Shown here piece by piece: positions 3,467-58,889 of a DNA stretch of 64,000 nucleotides (position 1 is the stretch's first letter; every line of letters begins with the position of its first letter). Source of the stretch: an uncultured Prevotella sp. GTDB taxonomy: Bacteria > Bacteroidota > Bacteroidia > Bacteroidales > Bacteroidaceae. The position numbers and the translations under genes are program-made. The notes under the pieces were generated by a model, which saw nothing but the letters and a program-made list of their open reading frames with translations, searched no databases and had not been told where the DNA came from. The stretch lies in NCBI GenBank assembly GCA_934120735.1, contig CAKOVA010000001.1:1-64000 (forward strand), read 5' to 3'.

Positions 3467-3554
3467 CAAACGCATTGAGTTTAGCGTCCAATCTCATTGA
3501 CATTGCCGTGTAAAAGCATTGAGTTTGGCACCCAAAGGCAATGCATTTGCAGGG
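3467..3554 (+). repeat. Four-unit 22-nt tandem array (core-only copy G of the dispersed element)
   Basis: Four consecutive 22-nt units start at 3467, 3489, 3511 and 3533. Each begins CAA or TAA and carries a word related to GCATTGAG or GCAATGCA at the same offset. Units 1 and 3 share GCATTGAGTTT. The array matches the core of the larger elements at 9.5, 16.1, 23.9, 37.0, 48.0 and 58.2 kb, but the flanking conserved parts are not recognisable here. It lies between convergent genes. Confidence 0.7.
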
Positions 3555-8455: not shown

Positions 8456-8595
8456 TAATTTTGCAGAAAATAGGCTGCACCTTAACATAGAAAGTGAACT
8501 TTCTCTGTTTTCGGTTTGCACTAATTGTGCATAAAATAGGCTGCACCTTAACATAGAAAGTGAACTTTCTCTGTTTTCGGTTTGCGCTATTTTTG
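8456..8595 (+). repeat. 66-bp tandem duplication carrying three -7 promoter boxes
   Basis: A 53-base block (8467-8519) is repeated without change at 8533-8585, a period of 66 bp. TAnnTTTG-like boxes precede, separate and follow the copies: TAATTTTG 8456-8463, TAATTGTG 8522-8529 and TATTTTTG 8588-8595, exactly 66 bp apart. Each block also contains the inverted repeat AGAAAGT-GA-ACTTTCT. The last box is 20 bp before the pantothenate kinase start, so the duplication multiplies the promoter of that gene. Confidence 0.85.
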
Positions 8596-8615
8596 CAAGC
8601 AATAAAACAGTAATT

Positions 8616-9496: not shown

Positions 9497-9900
9497 GATG
9501 TAATTTTTCTTAACAACAAGCCTTCTTATATTGGACGTATTTGCGAACAAAGCAGACTTGGGCGCAAATACGCCAAATATGAGCGATTTTTGTATATAGT
9601 TGATATATAAAGAATTACGTCTATATATAACCCTTGTCCCATCTTTTTCCACCCATTTTTTAGGCAAAAGCATTGCTTTTGGCCGCCAATTCACATGACT
9701 TTGCAGCGCAAAAGCATGTGGATAGACCGCCAAAGTGCTGCATTTTGTGGTGAAAAATCATTGTTTTTGCGCAAAAAATCAATATTTCCATCCAAATTAT
9801 TCCTTGTTTACATCCTCCGAGCCTATTGATTTTTTCCAGATTAAAAGATTTGAAGAGCCGTTTTAGGGGCGTTTTTCACACAAAAAACTTAACATTTTGC
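9497..9900 (+). repeat. Dispersed intergenic element, copy A
   Basis: Entry sequence TTTTTCTTAACAACAAGCC near 9501, then an imperfect inverted repeat around GACGTATTTGCG / CGCAAATACGCC, an AT-rich stretch, and five exact 22-nt units (starts 9665, 9687, 9709, 9731, 9753). The exit sequence contains CCTATTGATTTTTTCCAGA, GATTTGAAGAGCCG and TTTTAGGGGCG. It fills most of the gap between coaW and the exporter operon. Confidence 0.8.
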
Positions 9901-15963: not shown

Positions 15964-16140
15964 ACGTTTGTCCCGTCATCCATTTGGATGTCCAAAAAAT
16001 CGACTGCAGTTGAATCGCTTAACTGGGACCGATGACGTTTGCATATATGACAAATGGACTGGATGGATGACATACTTTCATCCGCAGCCGTTATTCGTTT
16101 AAGTAGAGAGCAGTGGGTGGAAGATGGCGCATGTCGTTGA

Positions 16141-16535
16141 CTTTTTTTACCAAATAATACCCCAAAAACGATACTTCAAATCTTTCAATCTAGAAAAATT
16201 CAATAGGCAAACAGGATGCAAATAAGAGATAAGCGTGGCTGAAAATGCGAATTTTACCTTCAGCGCGTAGCTTTTATTAGCTTATATGCATCACTTTGGT
16301 GCTCAATTTACATGCTCTTGCTTTGCAAAAGCATGTAGATTGCAGCCTTAAAGCAATGCTTTTAATGAAGAAAAGCTTGAAAAACAACCCCCTGAGTGTG
16401 ATTATTAACCATAACGTATTGGCTCACAGGTACATCTGAAAGCCGCTTCATATTTGGCTTATTTGCAACGAAACGATTGTTGTTTGTAAATAAGCCAAAT
16501 ATGAAGCGGCTGCTTGTCAAGAATATTCACACCCA
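16141..16535 (-). repeat. Dispersed intergenic element, copy B (best hairpin)
   Basis: This copy is on the minus strand: entry TTCTTGACAAG near 16522, then a near-perfect inverted repeat with arms 16441-16468 and 16484-16511 (28 bp, one mismatch, 15-nt loop). Five 22-nt units fill 16255-16364. The exit TTTTTCTAGATTGAAAGATT lies near 16200-16180. It fills the gap between two convergent genes, and the 28-bp hairpin could also stop transcription from either side. Confidence 0.85.
16441..16511. repeat. 28-bp inverted repeat inside element B
   Basis: The arms start AGCCGCTTCATATTTGGC and differ at one base in 28 (G or A near the loop). The corresponding arms in the other element copies are much more degenerate. 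Since base pairing is best kept here, this may be the youngest copy, or the hairpin may be under selection as a terminator between the convergent genes. Confidence 0.85.
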
Positions 16536-23573: not shown

Positions 23574-23673
23574 TTGCAGATACGATATCATTTCGTATCT
23601 TTGCAATGTGTTTTTCATAGTATTAGATTTAAGGTTAATAAGATTGAGAGTACGGCGGTACTCTTTTTTTTTT
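23574..23673 (+). ncRNA. Candidate small RNA with own promoter and terminator
   Basis: A compact unit without a gene: TTG (23574-23576), a 19-bp spacer, TATCTTTG (23596-23603), then about 65 nt ending in an intrinsic terminator (AGAGTAC 23647-23653, loop GGCG, GTACTCT 23658-23664, ten T residues to 23673). The transcribed part has GTGTTTTTCATAGTATTAG followed by ATTTAAGGTTAA. From memory, this leader-like sequence recurs in Bacteroidales genomes, sometimes ahead of genes, but I cannot name an Rfam family. It may be a free small RNA or an attenuated leader of a lost gene. Confidence 0.55.
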
Positions 23674-23851
23674 GCTCATAAATCATTAAAATTACGACAC
23701 ATACCTTGCTCGTTGGCAGCATGAACACAGCTTTCCAGCAGCGACTGTCAGTGCCTACCACCCCGAAACCAATACAGAAGTCACACCATTTTGAAAGCTC
23801 TACTTTATCACTCACCGTATCGTCATGAATAAGATTTCGGAGAAAAGTGCA
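23674..23851. other. Gap with no recognised gene after the small RNA candidate
   Basis: A 35-codon ATG frame at 23721-23828 (begins MNTAFQQRLSVPT) is the only thing that could follow the leader-like RNA. I recognise no family and no ribosome-binding site. It may be a remnant. Confidence 0.3.
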
Positions 23852-24232
23852 GATGAATTTTCTTGACAACCGACCTTTTCATGCTTGGCGAATTTGCAAA
23901 CAACCATCCGTCTTGTCACAAATACGCCCAAAATGAGCGATTTTTATATATCATTCATACACAGGTATTTATAAATATATGATGCTGTTTCGTGCCAATT
24001 TGATAAGTCTTTATATTCCAAAAGCAATGCTTTTAGGGTGCAATATGCATGCTTTTACTGCTCAAAAGCATGTTGATTGGTAGCCAAAGTGATGCTTTTT
24101 TGCGCATAAAGTCAATACTTTAGTGATAAAATTCGATTTTTCTGGCTCCAAAATCTCTGTTTTGCATCCTCCAAGCCTATCGTTTTTTTTCTAGTTTGAA
24201 AGTTTACAGGTGCCGTTTTAGGGGTGATAATT
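23852..24232 (+). repeat. Dispersed intergenic element, copy C
   Basis: Entry GATGAATTTTCTTGACAAC at 23852, a degenerate inverted repeat around GGCGAATTTGCAA / ACAAATACGCCC, an AT-rich part with ATATAT words, five exact 22-nt units (starts 24019, 24041, 24063, 24085, 24107), then GCATCCTCCAAGCCTATCG, TTTTTTCTAG and GCCGTTTTAGGGG. Units 2 and 3 together form the hairpin CATGCTTTT / AAAAGCATG. It lies between convergent genes. Confidence 0.85.
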
Positions 24233-24475
24233 GTTGAATAAACACAACAAAAATTGCAACTTGTATTTAAGTTGGTCAATCGGCAATAATATTGTCAGCG
24301 GGTGGGTTTTCTATCGCTTTTTCAGGAGAGGTTCATCTGGTAAACTAACTATCAACAACGATACGGGTTATGTAGTCGTCAGCTCAGTTTACGAATGGAA
24401 ACTTGATTTTAGAGCCAGACTTAAGCTTGATGAAGATCGTGTCAATGCTTTTGAACGGCAATACCAGTGGGGGCG
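24233..24475. other. Gap with no supported gene
   Basis: A 94-codon frame crosses this stretch (24231-24515) but ends inside the terminator of the opposite gene, has no recognisable domain and no promoter; I do not call it. Nothing else is evident. Confidence 0.3.
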
Positions 24476-24508
24476 CAAAAAAAATGACAACCGTCAATCG
24501 GTTGTCAT
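24476..24508 (-). terminator. Terminator of the YtxH/holin-like operon
   Basis: ATGACAACCG and CGGTTGTCAT form a perfect 10-bp stem with a 5-nt loop. On the minus strand it is followed by eight T residues, 21 bp after the last gene of the operon. Confidence 0.85.
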
Positions 24509-24529
24509 AGTTTAGTTTCTGAAAAAAAA

Positions 24530-24796
24530 TTATCTTCTTTTCTTGAATTTTCTGTACAATTTCCAGGCCAACAGCACGCCGTCGAAGATGCCAGTCCCAG
24601 TGTTCATCAACCCCGATATACGTTTCGAGGGCAGCTTTGATGTCAGCGTGGCTGGCTTGTTGAACATGCTGTTCCAAAGATGCCGCATGCCTTCGTCATC
24701 CTTCCTGATGCTTTTCAAAATCTGGTCTTTGCGTATCCTGATTTCTGTGAGCGACTTATATTGTGCGGGAGCGTTATTATCTGTATTGTTTGTCAT
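24530..24796 (-). CDS. Small basic protein of the YtxH/holin-like operon
   Basis: An 88-residue protein with a polar N-terminus (MTNNTDNNAPAQYKSLTEI), a middle rich in Lys and Arg (IRIRKDQILKSIRKDDEG), one moderately hydrophobic segment (GTGIFDGVLLAWKLYRKF) and a very basic end (KKRR). I do not recognise a named domain. It is the last gene of a three-gene operon, separated by one base from the holin-like gene. By position it matches the third small gene (YqjK-like) of YqjD-YqjE-YqjK-type operons, but this is inference from context only. Confidence 0.7.
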   Translation of the reverse strand: MTNNTDNNAPAQYKSLTEIRIRKDQILKSIRKDDEGMRHLWNSMFNKPATLTSKLPSKRISGLMNTGTGIFDGVLLAWKLYRKFKKRR

Positions 24797-24797
24797 G

Positions 24798-25148
24798 TCA
24801 CTTCTCCATTAATAGGCTTGCCAGAAACCTGACAAGTGGTCGCTCTATCCACTGTTTGCGGAAGAGGAAGAACAACAAAAAGATGAATAAATAGCCTCCA
24901 GCCACAATCAGGAAGCCAAAAGGCAGGCCCACGTGCGGTTCGAGCGCGTATGCTGCTGCGAACGACACGTAGATGAGTGCCAATATCATGATGATGGAAA
25001 GCGCTGTGACCAAGGTGATAACTGTGATGAGACGTACCACCTTCTCAATCACATCGAGCTTCGCATATTCTGTCTGAAGCCCGATGTAATGTTTGAATAT
25101 ATCGACCAAACGGCCGATGGTCTCAACGTTCTGATCGTTTGAAAACAT
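24798..25148 (-). CDS. Phage-holin-superfamily (DUF1469/YqjE-like) membrane protein
   Basis: A 116-residue protein with an N-terminal amphipathic helix (IGRLVDIFKHYIGLQTEYAK) and two strong transmembrane segments (about 45-66 and 75-98), the layout of the actinobacterial holin-X/YqjE superfamily. Despite the family name it is not a phage gene. Related proteins sit in the inner membrane and are linked to stationary phase or stress. It lies 10 bp downstream of the YtxH gene. Confidence 0.8.
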   Translation of the reverse strand: MFSNDQNVETIGRLVDIFKHYIGLQTEYAKLDVIEKVVRLITVITLVTALSIIMILALIYVSFAAAYALEPHVGLPFGFLIVAGGYLFIFLLFFLFRKQWIERPLVRFLASLLMEK

Positions 25149-25158
25149 ATACTAATGT

Positions 25159-25377
25159 TTACTCTACGATGTCTGATGCAGCCTCTTTGATGTCGTCAAC
25201 CAAATTGTCAACATCTTTCTTTGACAGTTTGATGTCGTGTTTCTTGCAGAAATCATCAACCGTGTCAGAAATCTTGTTGCGTGTTCTTTTACCCTCTTGT
25301 GGAGCTATCAATAACCCAACCACTGCACCTGCGATGGCGCCACCTAAGAATGCGCCGATATAACCTACTGTTCTCAT
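25159..25377 (-). CDS. YtxH domain protein
   Basis: A 72-residue protein with an N-terminal Gly/Ala-rich membrane helix (YIGAFLGGAIAGAVVGLLIAP), the diagnostic QEGKRTRNKI turn and a charged helical C-terminus. YtxH/GvpP-like proteins are small membrane-anchored stress proteins. It is the first gene of the operon with the holin-like protein and the small basic protein. Confidence 0.85.
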   Translation of the reverse strand: MRTVGYIGAFLGGAIAGAVVGLLIAPQEGKRTRNKISDTVDDFCKKHDIKLSKKDVDNLVDDIKEAASDIVE

Positions 25378-25633
25378 TGTTTAATTGTTTTTAAAGTTGT
25401 TACTAAATCAGTTCTTTATAACGTTATAAGTGTTCGAATGTTTCGAACTATCGCAAATATAAGAAAAGTTTTGCAGATAGATAGTTAAAGCATTGCATAT
25501 TTTTGTTAAAAAACATGAGTTTTGAGCATTTAACAAACTTTATGCGGCCCTTTTGTTCCATTTTAGCGGATATTTTGTACCTTCGCCAAGTATAATGAAT
25601 CAACAGGTTTAATTAATAATATCTTACAGAATT

Positions 25634-26691: not shown

Positions 26692-26822
26692 ACGACGTTG
26701 TAACAGGTTTGATATGTGTTTGCATGGATATGGCTGCGAGTAGGCAAGTTCATGGTTCGCTCATCACATGAAAATAGAATTTTGTCAGTTTGTCAGCCAC
26801 AGAACAAGCACCACGTCAGCGA

Positions 26823-26880
26823 TCAACTTGTAAACTATCACCTCGTAAACTCGTCAACTTGTAAACTTGTAAACTAAAAA
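26823..26880 (+). repeat. Low-complexity TCAACTTGTAAACT words before def
   Basis: The words TCAACTTGTAAACT, CTCGTAAAC and TCGTCAACTTGTAAAC follow each other directly up to the def start codon. A similar run (CTCATCAACTAATAAACT...) precedes the LpxA-like gene at 54636-54672. Confidence 0.6.
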
Positions 26881-27444
26881 ATGATATTACCTATATATAT
26901 ATATGGTCAACCCGTGCTTCGCAAAGTGGCACAGGACATCACGCCCGAGTATGAAGGACTGGGACAGTTGATACAAGACATGTTTGAAACACTCGATTCG
27001 TCAGATGGTATTGGCCTAGCCGCACCGCAGATAGGAAAATCCATCCGCGTGGTAGTTATCGACCTCAACGTGTTGAGTGACGACTTTCCCGAATACAAAG
27101 ATTTTAGGCGTGCATACATCAATCCGCATATCATAGAGATTGACGAGAACGCACCCAAGGAGTCGATGGACGAGGGATGCCTCTCCATTCCCAGCATTCA
27201 TGAAGCCGTTTCAAGAACCACGCGCATTCGTGTGCAGTACATGGATGAAGACTTTACACCGCATGATGAATGGATAGAGGGCTATTTGGCCCGGGTGATG
27301 CAGCATGAGTTCGACCATCTGGACGGTAAAATGTTTGTTGATCGCATCTCGCCGTTCCGTAAACAAATGATCAAAAACAAACTGAAGGGTATGACGCAGG
27401 GCAAGTACGAGTGTCACTACCGCACCAAACCCGTTCGCAGATGA
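26881..27444 (+). CDS. def: Peptide deformylase
   Basis: It removes the formyl group from the N-terminal methionine of new proteins. The 187-residue protein shows all three deformylase motifs: GIGLAAPQIG (about 41-50), EGCLSIP with the metal-binding Cys (about 98-104), and QHEFDHLDGK with the two His ligands and catalytic Glu (about 140-149). The N-terminus ILPIYIYGQPVLRKVAQDI is typical. It is followed at 50 bp by the TPR protein gene, so both are probably in one transcript with ruvX upstream. Confidence 0.96.
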   Translation: MILPIYIYGQPVLRKVAQDITPEYEGLGQLIQDMFETLDSSDGIGLAAPQIGKSIRVVVIDLNVLSDDFPEYKDFRRAYINPHIIEIDENAPKESMDEGCLSIPSIHEAVSRTTRIRVQYMDEDFTPHDEWIEGYLARVMQHEFDHLDGKMFVDRISPFRKQMIKNKLKGMTQGKYECHYRTKPVRR

Positions 27445-36996: not shown

Positions 36997-37398
36997 GATG
37001 AATTTTCTTGACAACGAACCTCTTCATATTTGGCGTATTTCCCAACAACCTTTCCAGTCGTTGCAAATACGGCCTGTATGCGAAAGTTTTGTAAGTGGTT
37101 TTGATACAATTGGTTACAGATATGATTGTTTCTATGCCACTTTTTTTTCATGCATTTTTAAGCCAATAGCAATGCTTTAAGGGTGCAATTCGCATGCTTT
37201 TGTACTGTTAACCCATGCCTATTGACCGCTAATAAGATGCATTTGTGCGCATGAAAGCATTGCTTTATTGGTAAAAATAGAATTTTCTGACCCACCAATC
37301 ATTTGATTTGCACCCTGCGTGCCTACCATTTTTTTCTAGATGATCAACATTGATGAGCTGTTTTAGGCCCGTTTTTCGGGTAAAATTTTCAACATTTA
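36997..37398 (+). repeat. Dispersed intergenic element, copy D
   Basis: Entry GATGAATTTTCTTGACAAC identical to copy C, then TTCATATTTGGCGTATTTCCC and a partial return arm TTGCAAATACGGCC. Five 22-nt units start at 37164, 37186, 37208, 37230 and 37252. Exit: TGCACCCTGCGTGCCTACC, TTTTTTTCTAGA, GCTGTTTTAGGCCCG. It lies between two co-directional genes. Confidence 0.85.
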
Positions 37399-46561: not shown

Positions 46562-47998
46562 ATGCGTAATCTCTCCAATGCCGACTTGGCTCATCTTCTT
46601 GATCAACCTATCTTTCATCACCTATCCGCTGTGGCCGATGCCTTGCAGCTGGAATGCTATGTAGTGGGTGGCTATGTTCGCGACCTTTTTCTCGAACGAC
46701 CGTCCAACGACATCGACGTGGTGGTGGTGGGCAGCGGCATCAAAGTGGCCGAGGCCTTGAAGCAGCGGTTGGGCAAGCAAGCCCATCTGTCGGTATTCCG
46801 CAATTTTGGAACGGCTCAGGTGAAGTATCGGGGGCTGGAGGTGGAGTTCGTTGGTGCCCGAAAAGAAAGCTACAACCACGATTCACGCAAGCCCGTGGTG
46901 GAGGATGGCACCTTGGAGGACGACCAAAACCGACGTGATTTCACCATCAACGCCATGGCTGTCTGCCTCAACGAGGCGCGTTTTGGTGAGTTGGTTGATC
47001 CTTTTGACGGTCTTTTAGACCTGGAAGACGGCATCATTCGCACACCGCTCGACCCCGACATCACTTTCTCTGACGATCCATTGCGCATGATGCGCTGCGT
47101 GCGTTTCGCCACACAATTGAAGTTTTTCATCGAGGATGAAACCTTTGAGGCATTGCAGCGCAACCGGGAACGCATCAAGATTGTGAGTGGGGAACGTATC
47201 GCCGACGAGCTGAACAAAATCATGATGACCGACCAACCCAGTCGGGGATTCGTAGAACTGCATCGCTGTGGATTGCTCGAACTCATCTTGCCCGAGTTCA
47301 CCCTCATGGACATCGTGGAAACAAGGAACGGCAGAGCGCATAAAAACAATTTCTATCATACCCTGGAAGTGGTTGATAACATTTGCCAACATACCGACAA
47401 CTTGTGGCTTCGGTGGGCCGCTTTGTTCCATGACATCGGAAAACCACGCAGCAAAAGGTGGGACGTTCAGGCAGGATGGACGTTTCATAACCATAATTAC
47501 ATTGGCTCCAAGATGATTCCAGGCATCTTCAGACGACTCAAATTCCCCATGGACAGCAAGATGAAGTATGTGCAAAAAATGGTTGATATGCACATGCGTC
47601 CCATCGCCATCGCCGATGAAGAGGTGACCGATAGTGCCGTTCGTCGCTTGATGAACGATGCCGGTGACGACATCGACGGCCTCATGACGTTGTGCGAAGC
47701 CGACATTACCAGTAAAAACGCACAGCGCAAACAGCGGTTCTTGGACAACTTTCGCATGGTACGCGAGAAGCTGGATGACTTGAAAGAACGCGACTACAAG
47801 CGTCTGTTGCAGCCTTGCATCGACGGAAACGAAATCATGGAGATGTTCCACTTGCAGCCATCGCGCGAGGTGGGGACGCTGAAACAGACCTTAAAAGACG
47901 CGGTGCTTGATAATAAGGTGCCGAACGAACGCGAACCGTTGATGGCTCTTTTGATTGAAAAAGCCAAAAAAATGGGGTTGGACGTACCTCAAAAATAG
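46562..47998 (+). CDS. cca: CCA tRNA nucleotidyltransferase with HD domain
   Basis: It adds or repairs the 3' CCA end of tRNAs. The 478-residue protein starts at 46562 (MRNLSNADLA). It has the class II nucleotidyltransferase head (VGGYVRDLFLERPSNDIDVVVVG with the GG and DxD motifs), RRDFTINAMA, PLRMMRCVRFATQ and ERIADEL (motifs C-E), and an HD domain (about 255-380: LFHDIGKP). Whether it adds all of CCA or only part (A-adding or CC-adding) cannot be told from sequence alone. Confidence 0.93.
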   Translation: MRNLSNADLAHLLDQPIFHHLSAVADALQLECYVVGGYVRDLFLERPSNDIDVVVVGSGIKVAEALKQRLGKQAHLSVFRNFGTAQVKYRGLEVEFVGARKESYNHDSRKPVVEDGTLEDDQNRRDFTINAMAVCLNEARFGELVDPFDGLLDLEDGIIRTPLDPDITFSDDPLRMMRCVRFATQLKFFIEDETFEALQRNRERIKIVSGERIADELNKIMMTDQPSRGFVELHRCGLLELILPEFTLMDIVETRNGRAHKNNFYHTLEVVDNICQHTDNLWLRWAALFHDIGKPRSKRWDVQAGWTFHNHNYIGSKMIPGIFRRLKFPMDSKMKYVQKMVDMHMRPIAIADEEVTDSAVRRLMNDAGDDIDGLMTLCEADITSKNAQRKQRFLDNFRMVREKLDDLKERDYKRLLQPCIDGNEIMEMFHLQPSREVGTLKQTLKDAVLDNKVPNEREPLMALLIEKAKKMGLDVPQK

Positions 47999-48012
47999 GA
48001 GTGAAGGAACTG

Positions 48013-48352
48013 CGGTTTTGTCAATATTTTTGGTCGTTTCAAAACTTGCATTCTAGAAAAAATCCAGCCAATTTTAGCTTCAAAAATCACTTTCTGATGC
48101 CCTTGTTTGGCCAATAGCATTGACTTTGGTCTTCTATAGCATGCTTTTTGTTCCTGAAAAGCATATCCGTTGCAGGTCAATCTCAATGCTCTTAGCGTGT
48201 AATATGATTGCTTTTGAGATAACGTTCATAGGGAATTAAGCAGGAAGTTGCTGTGGGTGAGGCACATACAAAATTCGCGTATTTTCGACCACCGAGGCAG
48301 TTGCTTGCAAATACGCGAGTATTTGAGCGGGTTTGCAAGATTTTTCAACATC
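48013..48352 (-). repeat. Dispersed intergenic element, copy E
   Basis: Minus-strand copy. Entry near 48350 is degenerate (AAAATCTTGCAAACC); the return arms are CTCGCGTATTTGCAA / CGAAAATACGCG. Six 22-nt units fill 48085-48216. The exit TTTTTTCTAGAATGCAAGTTTT lies near 48060-48036. It is between two co-directional genes. Confidence 0.75.
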
Positions 48353-56089: not shown

Positions 56090-56968
56090 TTACTTTCCTC
56101 TTTCTGCCATCAGCACTTCAATCTCGTGTTCGTTGATGCCCACCATGGCCTCACCAAGGTCTTCTGACAGCTCAGCCAACCGCTTCGCATCGTTGTAGTT
56201 GGTCACAGCCTGAACGATGGCAGCTGCGCGCTTGGCAGGATTGCCCGATTTGAATATGCCCGAACCCACGAACACTCCTTCAGCTCCAAGTTGCATCATC
56301 AGGGCTGCATCGGCAGGAGTTGCTACGCCACCAGCGGCAAAGTTCACCACAGGCAGCTTGCCGTTTTCGTGTACATACTGCACCAGTTCGTAGGGAACCT
56401 GCAATTGTTTGGCAGCCTCGTACAGCTCATCTTCAGCCATTGAGGTAAGCCTTCTGATTTCAGCCTGCATCATGCGCATGTGCGTCACAGCCTGAACCAC
56501 GTCGCCCGTACCCGGTTCTCCCTTGGTTCTGATCATGGTAGCACCTTCAGCAATGCGTCTGAGCGCCTCACCAAGGTTCTTTGCACCGCACACAAAAGGT
56601 ACGTCAAACTTGGTCTTGTCAATGTGATAGACATTGTCTGCGGGTGAGAGTACCTCGCTCTCGTCGATGTAATCAATCTCAATGGCCTGCAGAATCTGGG
56701 CTTCAACGAAGTGTCCGATGCGGCATTTGGCCATCACCGGTATGCTTACGGCCTTCTGAATACCCTTGATCATGTGCGGGTCGCTCATGCGCGAAACGCC
56801 ACCTGCCGCGCGAATGTCGGCCGGTATGCGCTCGAGAGCCATCACCGCACAGGCTCCGGCTTGTTCTGCGATACGTGCTTGCTCGGGTGTTGTAACGTCC
56901 ATGATGACGCCTCCCTTGAGCATTTGTGCTAAATTACGATTCAGTGTTTGTCTTTCAGTTGTTTTCAT
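56090..56968 (-). CDS. pdxS: Pyridoxal 5'-phosphate synthase lyase subunit
   Basis: It builds PLP from ribose 5-phosphate, glyceraldehyde 3-phosphate and ammonia from PdxT. The 292-residue TIM barrel has [50 protein letters not shown] with the catalytic Lys, the second Lys in the [11 protein letters not shown] area, and [20 protein letters not shown] for phosphate binding. It overlaps the upstream fusion gene by four bases (ATGA). Confidence 0.97.
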
Positions 56969-58038
56969 TTTATTTGTTTTTGTCGGTAAATACTTGGTGT
57001 TGAGTTTCCCATCTTCTTGAAAAACTTCGTGAAATGCGACTGCGAGTTAAACCCTAACGCATACGCTATCTCTTGTACGGTTTTGCTGGTGGTGTCCAAC
57101 AAGAACTTGCTTTCGTGAAAAACGTGTTCGTCGATGAGGGTCTTCGGCGTTTTCTGTACGATGCGTTTGGTCACCTGTCCCAGGTAACGGGGACTCACGT
57201 TCAGCATGTCGGCATAAAACCGCACATCGTTGTTGGTGGCATAATGTGTCGACACGGCATTCATGAATGCGTTGAGCAGCTCGCTTCCCCGTCCTTTCAG
57301 TTCGCCCATCTCGCTCATCTGCTGATGAATGTAAGCGTTGCCTCTGCTGATGGCCTCTCTGAAATCATCTGTTTCGCCCAGAAAATAGGCGATGGCCGAG
57401 GTCAGATTGCTGCCCAGTCCGTGTGCGTTGGTTTGCCAAAGGGTGGGCGAGGGCTCTACATGTATGTCGCCATCTTGCTGCCATGCGATGAAATCGTGGT
57501 CGTCGCCGCTGTGCAACAGCACGGCCCGGCACCCCATGTCCAATAGTTTTCTCATGCCGTTGGCGATGTCGTCGTGAGTCTTGAGCTGACTGTTCAGCAA
57601 GTAGACTGCGTCGTTTTGCTTTAGGATAACCAGCGAGCACAGCGGCAGCAGCTTGGTCTTGACGCTGTCAATCATCTCTGGCGGCATCAGCAGGTCGCCC
57701 TGGCTTGACGTCACCACCGGGTCGTAGATGAGTTGCGGTGGACGCCGTTTCGCCAAAATGCTCACCATATTCTCCAGCGTCTTCACGTTGCGAACCATGC
57801 CAACCTTCACCACCGAGGGCTTGATGTCGTCGACAAGAGCTTCCACCTGCTCTGCCACTACATCGGCCGGGATGTCGTAAAAGCGCTGGATGCCAAGCGT
57901 GTTCTGCATGGTGATTGACGTGATGACCGACACGGCGTATCCGCCCAAGGACGTGATGACCTTGATGTCGGCCTGGATTCCGGCTCCCCCAGAACCGTCA
58001 GAACCGGTGATTGTCAATATCGTGTTGCGCTGTTTCAT
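56965..58038 (-). CDS. ThiD/PdxK-like domain fused to AraC DNA-binding domain
   Basis: A 357-residue fusion. Residues 1-255 are a ThiD (hydroxymethylpyrimidine/pyridoxine kinase) fold: [20 protein letters not shown], the substrate Gln in TMQNT, and [11 protein letters not shown]. The catalytic GTGC motif is GLGS (Ser210, then Asn), and KGGH is replaced by HSGDD, so kinase activity is doubtful. Residues 268-357 are an AraC/XylS domain (HTH1 [21 protein letters not shown]2 [21 protein letters not shown]). Start at 58038 matches ThiD; an upstream ATG adds 27 residues. As first gene of the pdxST operon it is a likely vitamin B6 or HMP sensor-regulator (inference). Confidence 0.9.
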
Positions 58039-58116
58039 GCTATGTCGGCCCTTGATGGTGTGGAACCATGCGCGCCGATTGCCAGATACAAAGGAAAACA
58101 AAAAAAGCGAGTTGTA

Positions 58117-58124
58117 CAAATATA
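58117..58124 (-). promoter_or_regulatory. -7 box of the fusion-pdxS-pdxT operon
   Basis: TATATTTG on the minus strand, about 79 bp before the start at 58038, leaving a leader of about 70 nt. Confidence 0.5.
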
Positions 58125-58182: not shown

Positions 58183-58553
58183 CGAAATTTTCTTGACAAA
58201 GCCCTGTCCATAACTCGCGTATTCGCAGCCTCATGCCCCTTTGCTCGCAAATACGGCCAGGATTTCGCATGTTTGTAAGACGCTTGTGTTCAGTGAGTTG
58301 TCGCATTTTGTCAAGGCTTCTTACTTTCAATAGCTTTGCTTTTACCTTCCAATAGCATTGCTTTTGCCCGTCAAACCCATTGCTTTAATCACTCAATGGC
58401 ATGGCTATTTTCGATCAAAAGTGCATAAAAGTGGAGAAAAAGCATAAAGATTGGCCCTAAAAGACCATGGACAGCCTGCCAAAACTCTAATCACTGCATC
58501 TGAATCTCCCAATTCTTTTTCTAGAAGGAGCGTTCGTGAAGTGTTAAAAATCG
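58183..58553 (+). repeat. Dispersed intergenic element, copy F
   Basis: Entry GCGAAATTTTCTTGACAAA, then degenerate return arms (CTCGCGTATTCGCA / CTCGCAAATACGGCC). Four clear 22-nt units start at 58328, 58350, 58372 and 58394, and a weaker fifth at 58416. All four are of the unit-1 kind (CAATAGCATTGCTTTT). Exit TTCTTTTTCTAGAAGGAGCG. It separates two divergent operons. Confidence 0.8.
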
Positions 58554-58889
58554 GTTGGTTTTCTTGACAAAATCTGGTTTTAGAAAATTATAAATCAACA
58601 GGATCTAGTCGTTTTGTGGAAAACCATTTGTTTGGGTTGTGATGTTTATCAAGCAACAGATGTACAGTTTTGTTAATTAAAGTAACAAAGCTATTTTTCT
58701 TGTAGAAAATGATTTACCATATTCAACAGGAAGAAAGATATGTTGATTATTAGGAAGCAATCTGTGAGCTATGGGCTTACAGTACGATTGAGCGCAAGCA
58801 ATATCATTTGATTTCTACCGATAAATAGTGGCCAAAGGAGATTTAATTGTAAAAGAAAGTTAAAAACGATATTATACTTTTAAATCAAC
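58554..58889. other. AT-rich stretch upstream of the SusC/SusD pair
   Basis: No gene. TTTTCTTGACAAAATCTGG at about 58560 repeats the entry word of the dispersed element just after copy F, perhaps a remnant of a second copy. Confidence 0.35.

What the first reader, a model, noticed from the sequence alone, without database searches (positions are those of the whole stretch)
9665..9774. Exact 22-nt tandem units in seven dispersed intergenic arrays
Seven intergenic loci carry four to six consecutive units of exactly 22 nt: 3467-3554, 9665-9774, 16255-16364 (minus), 24019-24128, 37164-37273, 48085-48216 (minus) and 58328-58415. The consensus is CAAAAGCATTGCTTTT plus six variable bases. Sequence identity between units has decayed, but the period has not, which suggests selection on spacing. 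22 bp is close to two helical turns, so a protein could bind each unit from the same face, or the array could be a structural spacer. Units are contiguous, without spacers.
Basis: seen in the sequence. Interest (0 to 1): 0.85.

Follow-up and report, generated by a model that had tools for sequence, protein, structure and literature searches.

The report
Evenly spaced 22-base palindrome arrays
Chromosomes of Prevotella-type bacteria carry short arrays of 22-base palindromic units whose sequence differs between lineages but whose 22-base step does not, and which sit a few thousand bases apart more evenly than chance; they likely serve as docking points where a still unknown protein would organise the chromosome.

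Summary
In detail: seven intergenic arrays of exact 22-nt units, far above chance. Each unit is a 17-bp palindrome (CAAAAGCAWTGCTTTTG) plus 5 free bases. Four of the seven lie inside a ~396-bp non-coding element (inverted pair, spacer, five units, conserved tail). In 44 ortholog pairs substitutions fall from ~0.22 at free columns to 0.034 at conserved ones, so copies are under selection where they stand. A motif-free lag-22 scan finds such arrays in eight of nine further genomes of the genus examined, most with another palindrome; one family profile hits 65 of 120 genomes of the genus and 0 of 79 of other genera. Arrays are spaced more evenly than random intergenic sites (one genome: mean 8.65 kb, CV 0.28 without two long gaps, both holding mobile DNA). 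They are not BrickBuilt-type MITEs. PINSR of P. intermedia (177-184 copies, function unknown) is probably a relative, untested. Best reading: binding arrays of an unknown dimeric protein that divides the chromosome into ~9-kb stretches. Protein and function are inferred.

The parts
3467..3554 (+). array of 4 units, no left module or tail
   Evidence: same site in G001; not covered by the G063 alignment
9501..9895 (+). full ~396-bp element
   Evidence: same site in G001 and G063
9665..9774 (+). its 5-unit array (the finding's coordinates)
16134..16529 (-). full ~396-bp element
   Evidence: same site in G001 and G063
16255..16364 (-). its 5-unit array
23854..24250 (+). full ~396-bp element, used as BLAST query
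   Evidence: same site in G001 and G063
23880..23935 (+). left module: inverted pair, family core GGCGTATTTGC ... GCAAATACGCC (imperfect in this copy)
   Evidence: inverted-pair score 28.4; a null of 200 column shuffles reached 13.9
24019..24128 (+). its 5-unit array
24164..24247 (+). conserved tail (family consensus GCATCC..GCCTATTGATTTTTTCTAGATTGAAAG..GCCGTTTTAGGGGC)
36999..37395 (+). full ~396-bp element
   Evidence: same site in G001 and G063
37164..37273 (+). its 5-unit array
47990..48350 (-). variant element: left module and array, other right end; profile match 48038-48318; ends approximate
48085..48216 (-). its 6-unit array
   Evidence: same site in G063
58184..58558 (+). variant element: left end, module and array, other right end; profile match 58186-58446
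58328..58415 (+). its 4-unit array

Best explanation
Each array is a run of 17-bp palindromes set every 22 bp that is likely bound by a dimeric DNA-binding protein, and the arrays, spaced several kilobases apart along the ancestral chromosome, would act as anchors or boundaries that divide it into loops or supercoil domains of about 9 kb. Shown here: palindromic units, constant 22-bp step, mostly intergenic sites in either orientation, purifying selection in place, and spacing more even than random intergenic sites; three long array-free stretches of one genome hold mobile DNA. Inferred: that one protein binds each unit as a dimer, that neighbouring dimers co-operate on 4-6 contiguous units, that arrays bridge or insulate neighbouring stretches, and that the protein's specificity drifts between lineages with its sites following. 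The protein is not identified.
For: Palindrome and period. Selection in place: 44 one-to-one G001/G063 ortholog pairs (36 matched by both flanks), rate 0.21-0.25 at columns under 50% conserved, 0.034 at columns over 90%, the copy itself left out of the column count; window against G063, palindrome 44/510, free bases 35/150. Almost no conserved RNA fold. All four gene contexts occur: divergent 37, tandem 34 and 21, convergent 16, unclear 11 of 119. Even spacing against an intergenic null in six segments (ot299, G017, G092, G101, G001, window): CV at or below the observed value in 0, 13, 7, 33, 2 and 37 of 5000 draws. In 460 kb of G017 the two spacings over 25 kb hold an element with integrase, relaxase and type I RM genes, and a Mu-like prophage; the first 33 kb, also array-free by profile, hold a second Mu-like prophage beside host genes; the other 40 spacings have mean 8650 bp, CV 0.28. 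Same 22-bp step with other palindromes in other lineages. Ten genes beside six of the seven arrays show no common function.
Against: No binding protein found and no contact or binding data. The 26.5-kb array-free gap in ot299 is not mobile DNA by Pfam: it holds secDF, rhomboid, SusCD-type and GH85 genes. In G101 the count of short spacings is not unusual (1361 of 5000 null draws as low), only its CV is; for G001 and the window that count is as low in 142 and 75 of 5000. In ot299 three spacings are 1.2-1.9 kb. Array positions are not shared with distant G017 (3/19 same side, 3/19 opposite side), so sites come and go. G041, G011, G134 and G062 show few arrays or none. 45 of 120 genomes of the genus matched neither profile (strict filters, 11-12 candidates scored per genome). 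The palindrome/free-base contrast is weak against G001 (44/578, 19/170).
Confidence: 0.42

Rival explanations
1. A mobile, non-autonomous element family moved in trans by a transposase with target immunity; immunity would give the even spacing, and the copies are now mostly static.
For: Hundreds of bp conserved between copies, turnover of sites at genus depth, and few spacings under 5 kb in G017 (4 of 148), as immunity would give. L005 and L006 are near-alike including some flank, more like a segmental duplication.
Against: No target-site duplication (best excess over shuffled pairing 7 of 119) and at most a weak terminal inverted repeat (score 11.0; null 95th percentile 10.6, maximum 13.9). 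Window arrays are at the same sites in G001 (7 of 7) and G063 (6 of the 6 covered). Selection at conserved columns long after insertion is not expected of relics.
Confidence: 0.22
2. Operator arrays of a global transcription factor, or insulators between transcription units, acting on neighbouring genes.
For: Intergenic; 135 of 227 gene sides face a 5' end, and only 4 of those 135 distances to a start codon are under 100 bp.
Against: Convergent sites exist (16 of 119), ten neighbours share no function, and even spacing across unrelated genes is not expected of a regulon.
Confidence: 0.18
3. Lineage-specific self-marks read by a DNA repair, uptake or defence system, as Chi sites or uptake sequences are (recalled), which would explain differing palindromes and their absence from mobile DNA.
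For: Palindromes differ between lineages; three long array-free stretches in G017 hold mobile DNA; one element searched against the phage collection gave no match.
Against: Orientation-neutral multi-unit arrays with a 300-bp surround are far larger than any mark I know (recalled); mobile DNA lacks them also if it merely arrived late; the long ot299 gap is not mobile DNA.
Confidence: 0.1
4. A family of structured RNAs or bidirectional terminators.
For: MFE z of -2.5 and -2.7 on the two strands against -1.0 for upstream flanks; left module z -3.9, array -1.8, tail -0.1 (30 of 61 G001 elements). Arms of the left inverted pair change together in some copies (L016, L024).
Against: RNAalifold consensus energy -0.95 kcal/mol with 5 pairs and no compensatory change (22 of 29 copies); similar z on both strands, as DNA palindromes give; no Rfam match at the elements.
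Confidence: 0.05

Closest known systems
[quoted passage not shown] PMC4755523: abstract, one of five parts of the main section, and passages seen)
   Same: Intergenic, non-coding, no TIR, 177-184 copies on both chromosomes, about three quarters of sites shared between two strains, absent from most CTns/MTns, function unknown.
   Different: 188 bp against ~396 bp; '22-bp' and 'tandem repeat' do not occur in the main text, and no spacing analysis was seen in what I read; reported in four species only. Its consensus is in a figure, so kinship could not be tested.
BrickBuilt MITE (PMC4596501: abstract, sections 5 and 8, and part 1 of section 7 seen)
   Same: Contiguous tandem units between leader and tail, intergenic, dispersed.
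   Different: 23-nt unit, 1 to 22.8 units, IS5-type terminal inverted repeats, 19 copies, P. gingivalis and P. gulae only; here 22 nt, no clear TIR, no TSD.
MatP/matS (recalled)
   Same: Chromosomal palindromic sites that organise the nucleoid.
   Different: Single 13-bp sites, only in the terminus region; here 4-6-unit arrays over the chromosome.
Plasmid iterons and partition centromeres, e.g. R6K 22-bp iterons, pSK41 parC (recalled)
   Same: Contiguous ~20-22-bp units that load a protein side by side.
   Different: One site per replicon beside its own rep/par gene; here dozens to hundreds of sites.

Membership tests
BrickBuilt MITE | 23-nt direct repeat unit | tested here: not met
   22 nt in 34 units
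BrickBuilt MITE | terminal inverted repeats of GAGACCTTTGCA type | tested here: not met
   ends read AATTTTCTTGAC.../...AACA; general TIR score 11.0 against null 95% 10.6, maximum 13.9, so a weak TIR of another type is not excluded
BrickBuilt MITE | target-site duplication in some copies | tested here: not met
   no clear enrichment over shuffled pairing in 119 copies
PINSR | 188-bp length | tested here: not met
   395-399 bp in 29 copies
PINSR | consensus sequence | not testable with these tools
   printed only in a figure; primers in a supplement; one strain-17 record sought, not held
PINSR | intergenic, many copies | tested here: met
   139 of 153 array centres outside ORFs of 90 aa or more; at least 61 and 58 full copies
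PINSR | absent from mobile elements | tested here: inconclusive
   true of three mobile stretches in G017; other mobile DNA not examined
CRISPR | repeats separated by unique spacers of similar size | tested here: not met
   units contiguous, 5 free bases only
Rfam RNA families | match at gathering score | tested here: not met
   only FopS at 23608-23674, outside the elements
MatP/matS-like organiser | dedicated binding protein and effect on chromosome contacts | not tested
   no protein identified
REP/BIME | REP hairpin with RAYT transposase | not tested
   no RAYT search was made

The most novel reading that the evidence does not exclude
Prevotella chromosomes carry a built-in ruler: arrays of dimer-binding palindromes at a fixed 22-bp pitch, set every ~6-10 kb through the ancestral chromosome, each lineage with its own palindrome, that fold the chromosome into domains and mark old chromosome against newly arrived mobile DNA; PINSR is one dialect of this system.
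Probability: 0.3. Interest if true: 0.95.

Novelty: new variant of a known kind. Interest (0 to 1): 0.82.

Why it matters
I know of no bacterial chromosome shown to carry evenly spaced, selected, multi-unit binding arrays over long stretches. If confirmed, it gives a defined DNA handle on how Bacteroidota, which lack several well-studied nucleoid proteins (recalled), partition their chromosomes; it would explain PINSR, unexplained since 2015; and it offers a natural case of a DNA-binding specificity and very many sites changing together between lineages. Even spacing can be read off any new Prevotella genome, so the claim is directly testable.

Tried and rejected
Coding function: every frame of all 29 full elements holds at least one stop, nearly always several. 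RNA: almost no conserved fold. CRISPR, BrickBuilt: see membership. Intrinsic curvature as the common denominator: A-tracts recur about every 11 bp in the window's units, but the G134 units (TTCCAGCCCCTGGAA) have none. Fixed element length as proof of constraint: dropped, since indel rates are no lower in elements than in other non-coding DNA. Replication-oriented sites: strands in G017 look mixed (by eye only); sampled GC skew weak and dnaA at 2.59 Mb uninformative. G011 as P. intermedia: its arrays are too sparse (5 in 160 kb). 'All long gaps are mobile DNA': true of three stretches in G017, not of the ot299 gap. First lag-scan threshold was too high and gave almost nothing; the G001 line is void because its file had been overwritten (redone). 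Paper searches gave no hit; others gave listings in which no title or abstract start describes 22-bp arrays or even spacing in Prevotella (one listed paper, PMC5771137, was seen in passages); 67 led to PINSR, and 92 shows PINSR in no other of its ten listed papers.

Rows dropped: model R1 used 22 of 29 full-length elements and R2 used 17 of 28 G017 elements, partly to fit the column limit; 44 of 61 G001 elements had a paired ortholog among 58 G063 elements; genome searches scored only 150 candidates each and cut some lists, so copy numbers are lower bounds; 109 near-full-length matches were counted for length; spacing statistics use 148 match starts typed; of the profile loci, 63 of 70 (ot299), 42 of 43 (G017), 9 of 11 (G092), 12 of 13 (G101) and 6 of 9 (G001) were also seen by the lag scan, and all were used; hits nearer than 400 bp were merged.

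Full report
Observation. The seven arrays are real. A unit profile gives four-unit scores of 55-78 at them, against at most 8.8 in 30 simulated windows. Positions 1-17 of the unit form an odd palindrome, CAAAAGCAWTGCTTTTG; positions 18-22 carry little information.

The arrays are part of something larger. Aligned with flanks, the copies at 9665, 16255, 24019 and 37164 match over about 396 bp: AATTTTCTTGACAAC, an inverted pair (GGCGTATTTGC ... GCAAATACGCC), a weakly conserved spacer, five units, then a tail with GCCTATTGATTTTTTCTAGATTGAAAG and GTGCCGTTTTAGGGGC. Those at 48085 and 58328 share the left half with another right end; 3467 is array only. All frames hold stops.

Where it occurs. The window's own assembly is not held. 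The nearest, G001, has the contig sizes of Hoylesella buccalis ATCC 35310, and G063 those of Prevotella sp. BV3P1. Coding DNA of the window is 95.9% identical to G001 over the aligned 56 kb. From the fetched loci, 61 (G001) and 58 (G063) distinct full-length elements were read; 57 of 61 and 57 of 58 lie within 3 bp of the modelled length, four of the other five are longer by 21-22 bp and one is shorter by 42. Indels are rare in this lineage in general, so this is not by itself proof of constraint.

Selection. All seven arrays are at the same sites in G001, and six of six covered ones in G063 (the seventh lies off the end of the alignment). As wholes, the elements diverge about as other non-coding DNA does (87-97% against 93%). 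Within them the rate is uneven: in 44 G001/G063 ortholog pairs it is 0.25, 0.22, 0.21, 0.17, 0.15, 0.12, 0.07 and 0.03 for columns of rising family conservation, the copy itself left out. Neutral decay of relics should be uniform.

Not RNA, not coupled to particular genes. RNAalifold finds five pairs and no compensatory change; fold z-scores are moderately low on both strands alike, lowest in the left module. Around 119 elements the gene contexts were divergent 37, tandem 34 and 21, convergent 16, unclear 11 (simple ORF calls). Ten genes beside the window's arrays have unrelated functions.

Other lineages. Profile R1 found weak full-length matches in G017, a complete 3.17-Mb genome of the same genus in the tool's sense. 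Its own family has the same plan with another sequence: ends TTTACAA, inverted pair GCGTATT ... AATACGC, and units with TTTGCGTCAAA / TTTGATGCAAA. Of 109 near-full-length matches 52 are within 3 bp of 387 and 51 within 3 bp of 364, one unit apart. A motif-free scan at lag 22 gave 47 loci in 460 kb of G017 (mean of 12 control lags 0.67), 9 in 80 kb of G092, 12 in 80 kb of G101, 6 in 80 kb of G119 (at least two of them longer repeats by eye), 2 in G041, 2 and 3 in two 80-kb parts of G011 (one not array-like by eye), 2 in G134, 1 (not array-like by eye) in G062, and none in about 394 kb from seven genomes of other families; in 450 kb of NC_022111.1 (Prevotella sp. oral taxon 299, 'ot299') it gave 73 against a mean of 1.5 at six control lags. 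The palindromes differ between lineages (GTTTTGCAACGCAAAAC in G101, TTCCAGCCCCTGGAA in G134, CAAAAGGTNATCTTTT in G011), though ot299 has nearly that of the window. Profiles R1 and R2 hit 56 and 65 of 120 genomes of the genus, their source genomes included (union 75); R2 hit 0 of 79 genomes from 79 other genera of the order, and R1 was not run there.

Even spacing. Among 148 matches across G017, 4 spacings are under 5 kb against 30.5 expected at random (lowest of 2000 draws 16; only 150 candidates were scored). Profiles re-made for each segment gave 43 arrays in G017 1-460 kb, 70 in ot299, 11 in G092, 13 in G101 and 9 in G001. Against random choice of intergenic gaps the spacing CV is low in all: ot299 0.64 (0 of 5000 draws as low), G017 0.64 (13), G092 0.34 (7), G101 0.45 (33), G001 0.26 (2), window 0.27 (37). 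The window and G001 segments overlap and are not independent, and G101 is not unusual in its number of short spacings. The two G017 gaps over 25 kb hold an integrase/relaxase/type I RM element and a Mu-like prophage, each beside host genes, and the array-free first 33 kb hold a second Mu-like prophage beside host genes such as sprA; without the two gaps 40 spacings have mean 8650 bp and CV 0.28, range 3.4-15.4 kb. Against this, the 26.5-kb gap in ot299 holds secDF, SusCD-type and GH85 genes and no mobile-element family (nine ORFs). Site sharing with other species is partial in ot299 (11 of 23 orthologous neighbours on the same side, 5 of 23 on the opposite side) and not seen in G017 (3 and 3 of 19): sites turn over while density and evenness stay.

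Mechanism. A lineage-specific palindrome, a constant two-turn step, contiguous units, no orientation rule and even spacing point to a dimeric protein that loads side by side and does something per kilobase of chromosome, not per gene. Domain or loop anchoring is the reading I commit to; ~9 kb is near the size of supercoil domains in E. coli (recalled). Protein, binding and domain function are inferred. A mobile-element origin with target immunity could give the spacing and is the main rival; absence of TSDs and of a clear TIR, shared sites and selection speak against it as the whole story.

Known relatives. PINSR (PMC4755523) is the nearest published thing my searches found: an intergenic 188-bp repeat with 177-184 copies, no TIR, absent from most CTns/MTns, function unknown. 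Its PCR panel, as listed in the legend of Figure 4, does not include H. buccalis, and PCR by sequence would miss other dialects. Whether PINSR has a 22-bp step I could not test. BrickBuilt (PMC4596501) differs in unit, ends and host.

Noticed in passing
23608-23674 +: Rfam match to BTncRNA_FopS (family of paralogous sRNAs), 72.4 bits, just upstream of the element at 23854.
   Followed up: no
8456-8597: Tandem repeat of a 66-bp unit, 2.2 copies at 93%; 66 is three times 22, but the sequence is unlike the array units; it also shows in the lag-22 scan (8479).
   Followed up: no
56965-58119 -: ORF that joins a phosphomethylpyrimidine kinase domain to an AraC-type HTH domain.
   Followed up: no
24251-25633: About 1.4 kb without a convincing ORF, 93% identical to G001.
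   Followed up: no
26822-26875: Short 8/16-bp tandem array (CTCGTAAA-like) just upstream of the ORF at 26881.
   Followed up: no
   Followed up: no
L277 (G017 2880001-2900000): 20 kb at 26% G+C with many weak lag-22 peaks, unlike the other sampled stretches of that genome.
   Followed up: no
L259 1-19000 and L286-L287 (G017): Two Mu-like prophages with closely similar portal proteins lie within 160 kb of each other in G017.
   Followed up: no
NC_022111.1: A 1.77-Mb Prevotella replicon filed as a plasmid; by size, array density and genes such as secDF it looks like a chromosome.
   Followed up: partly
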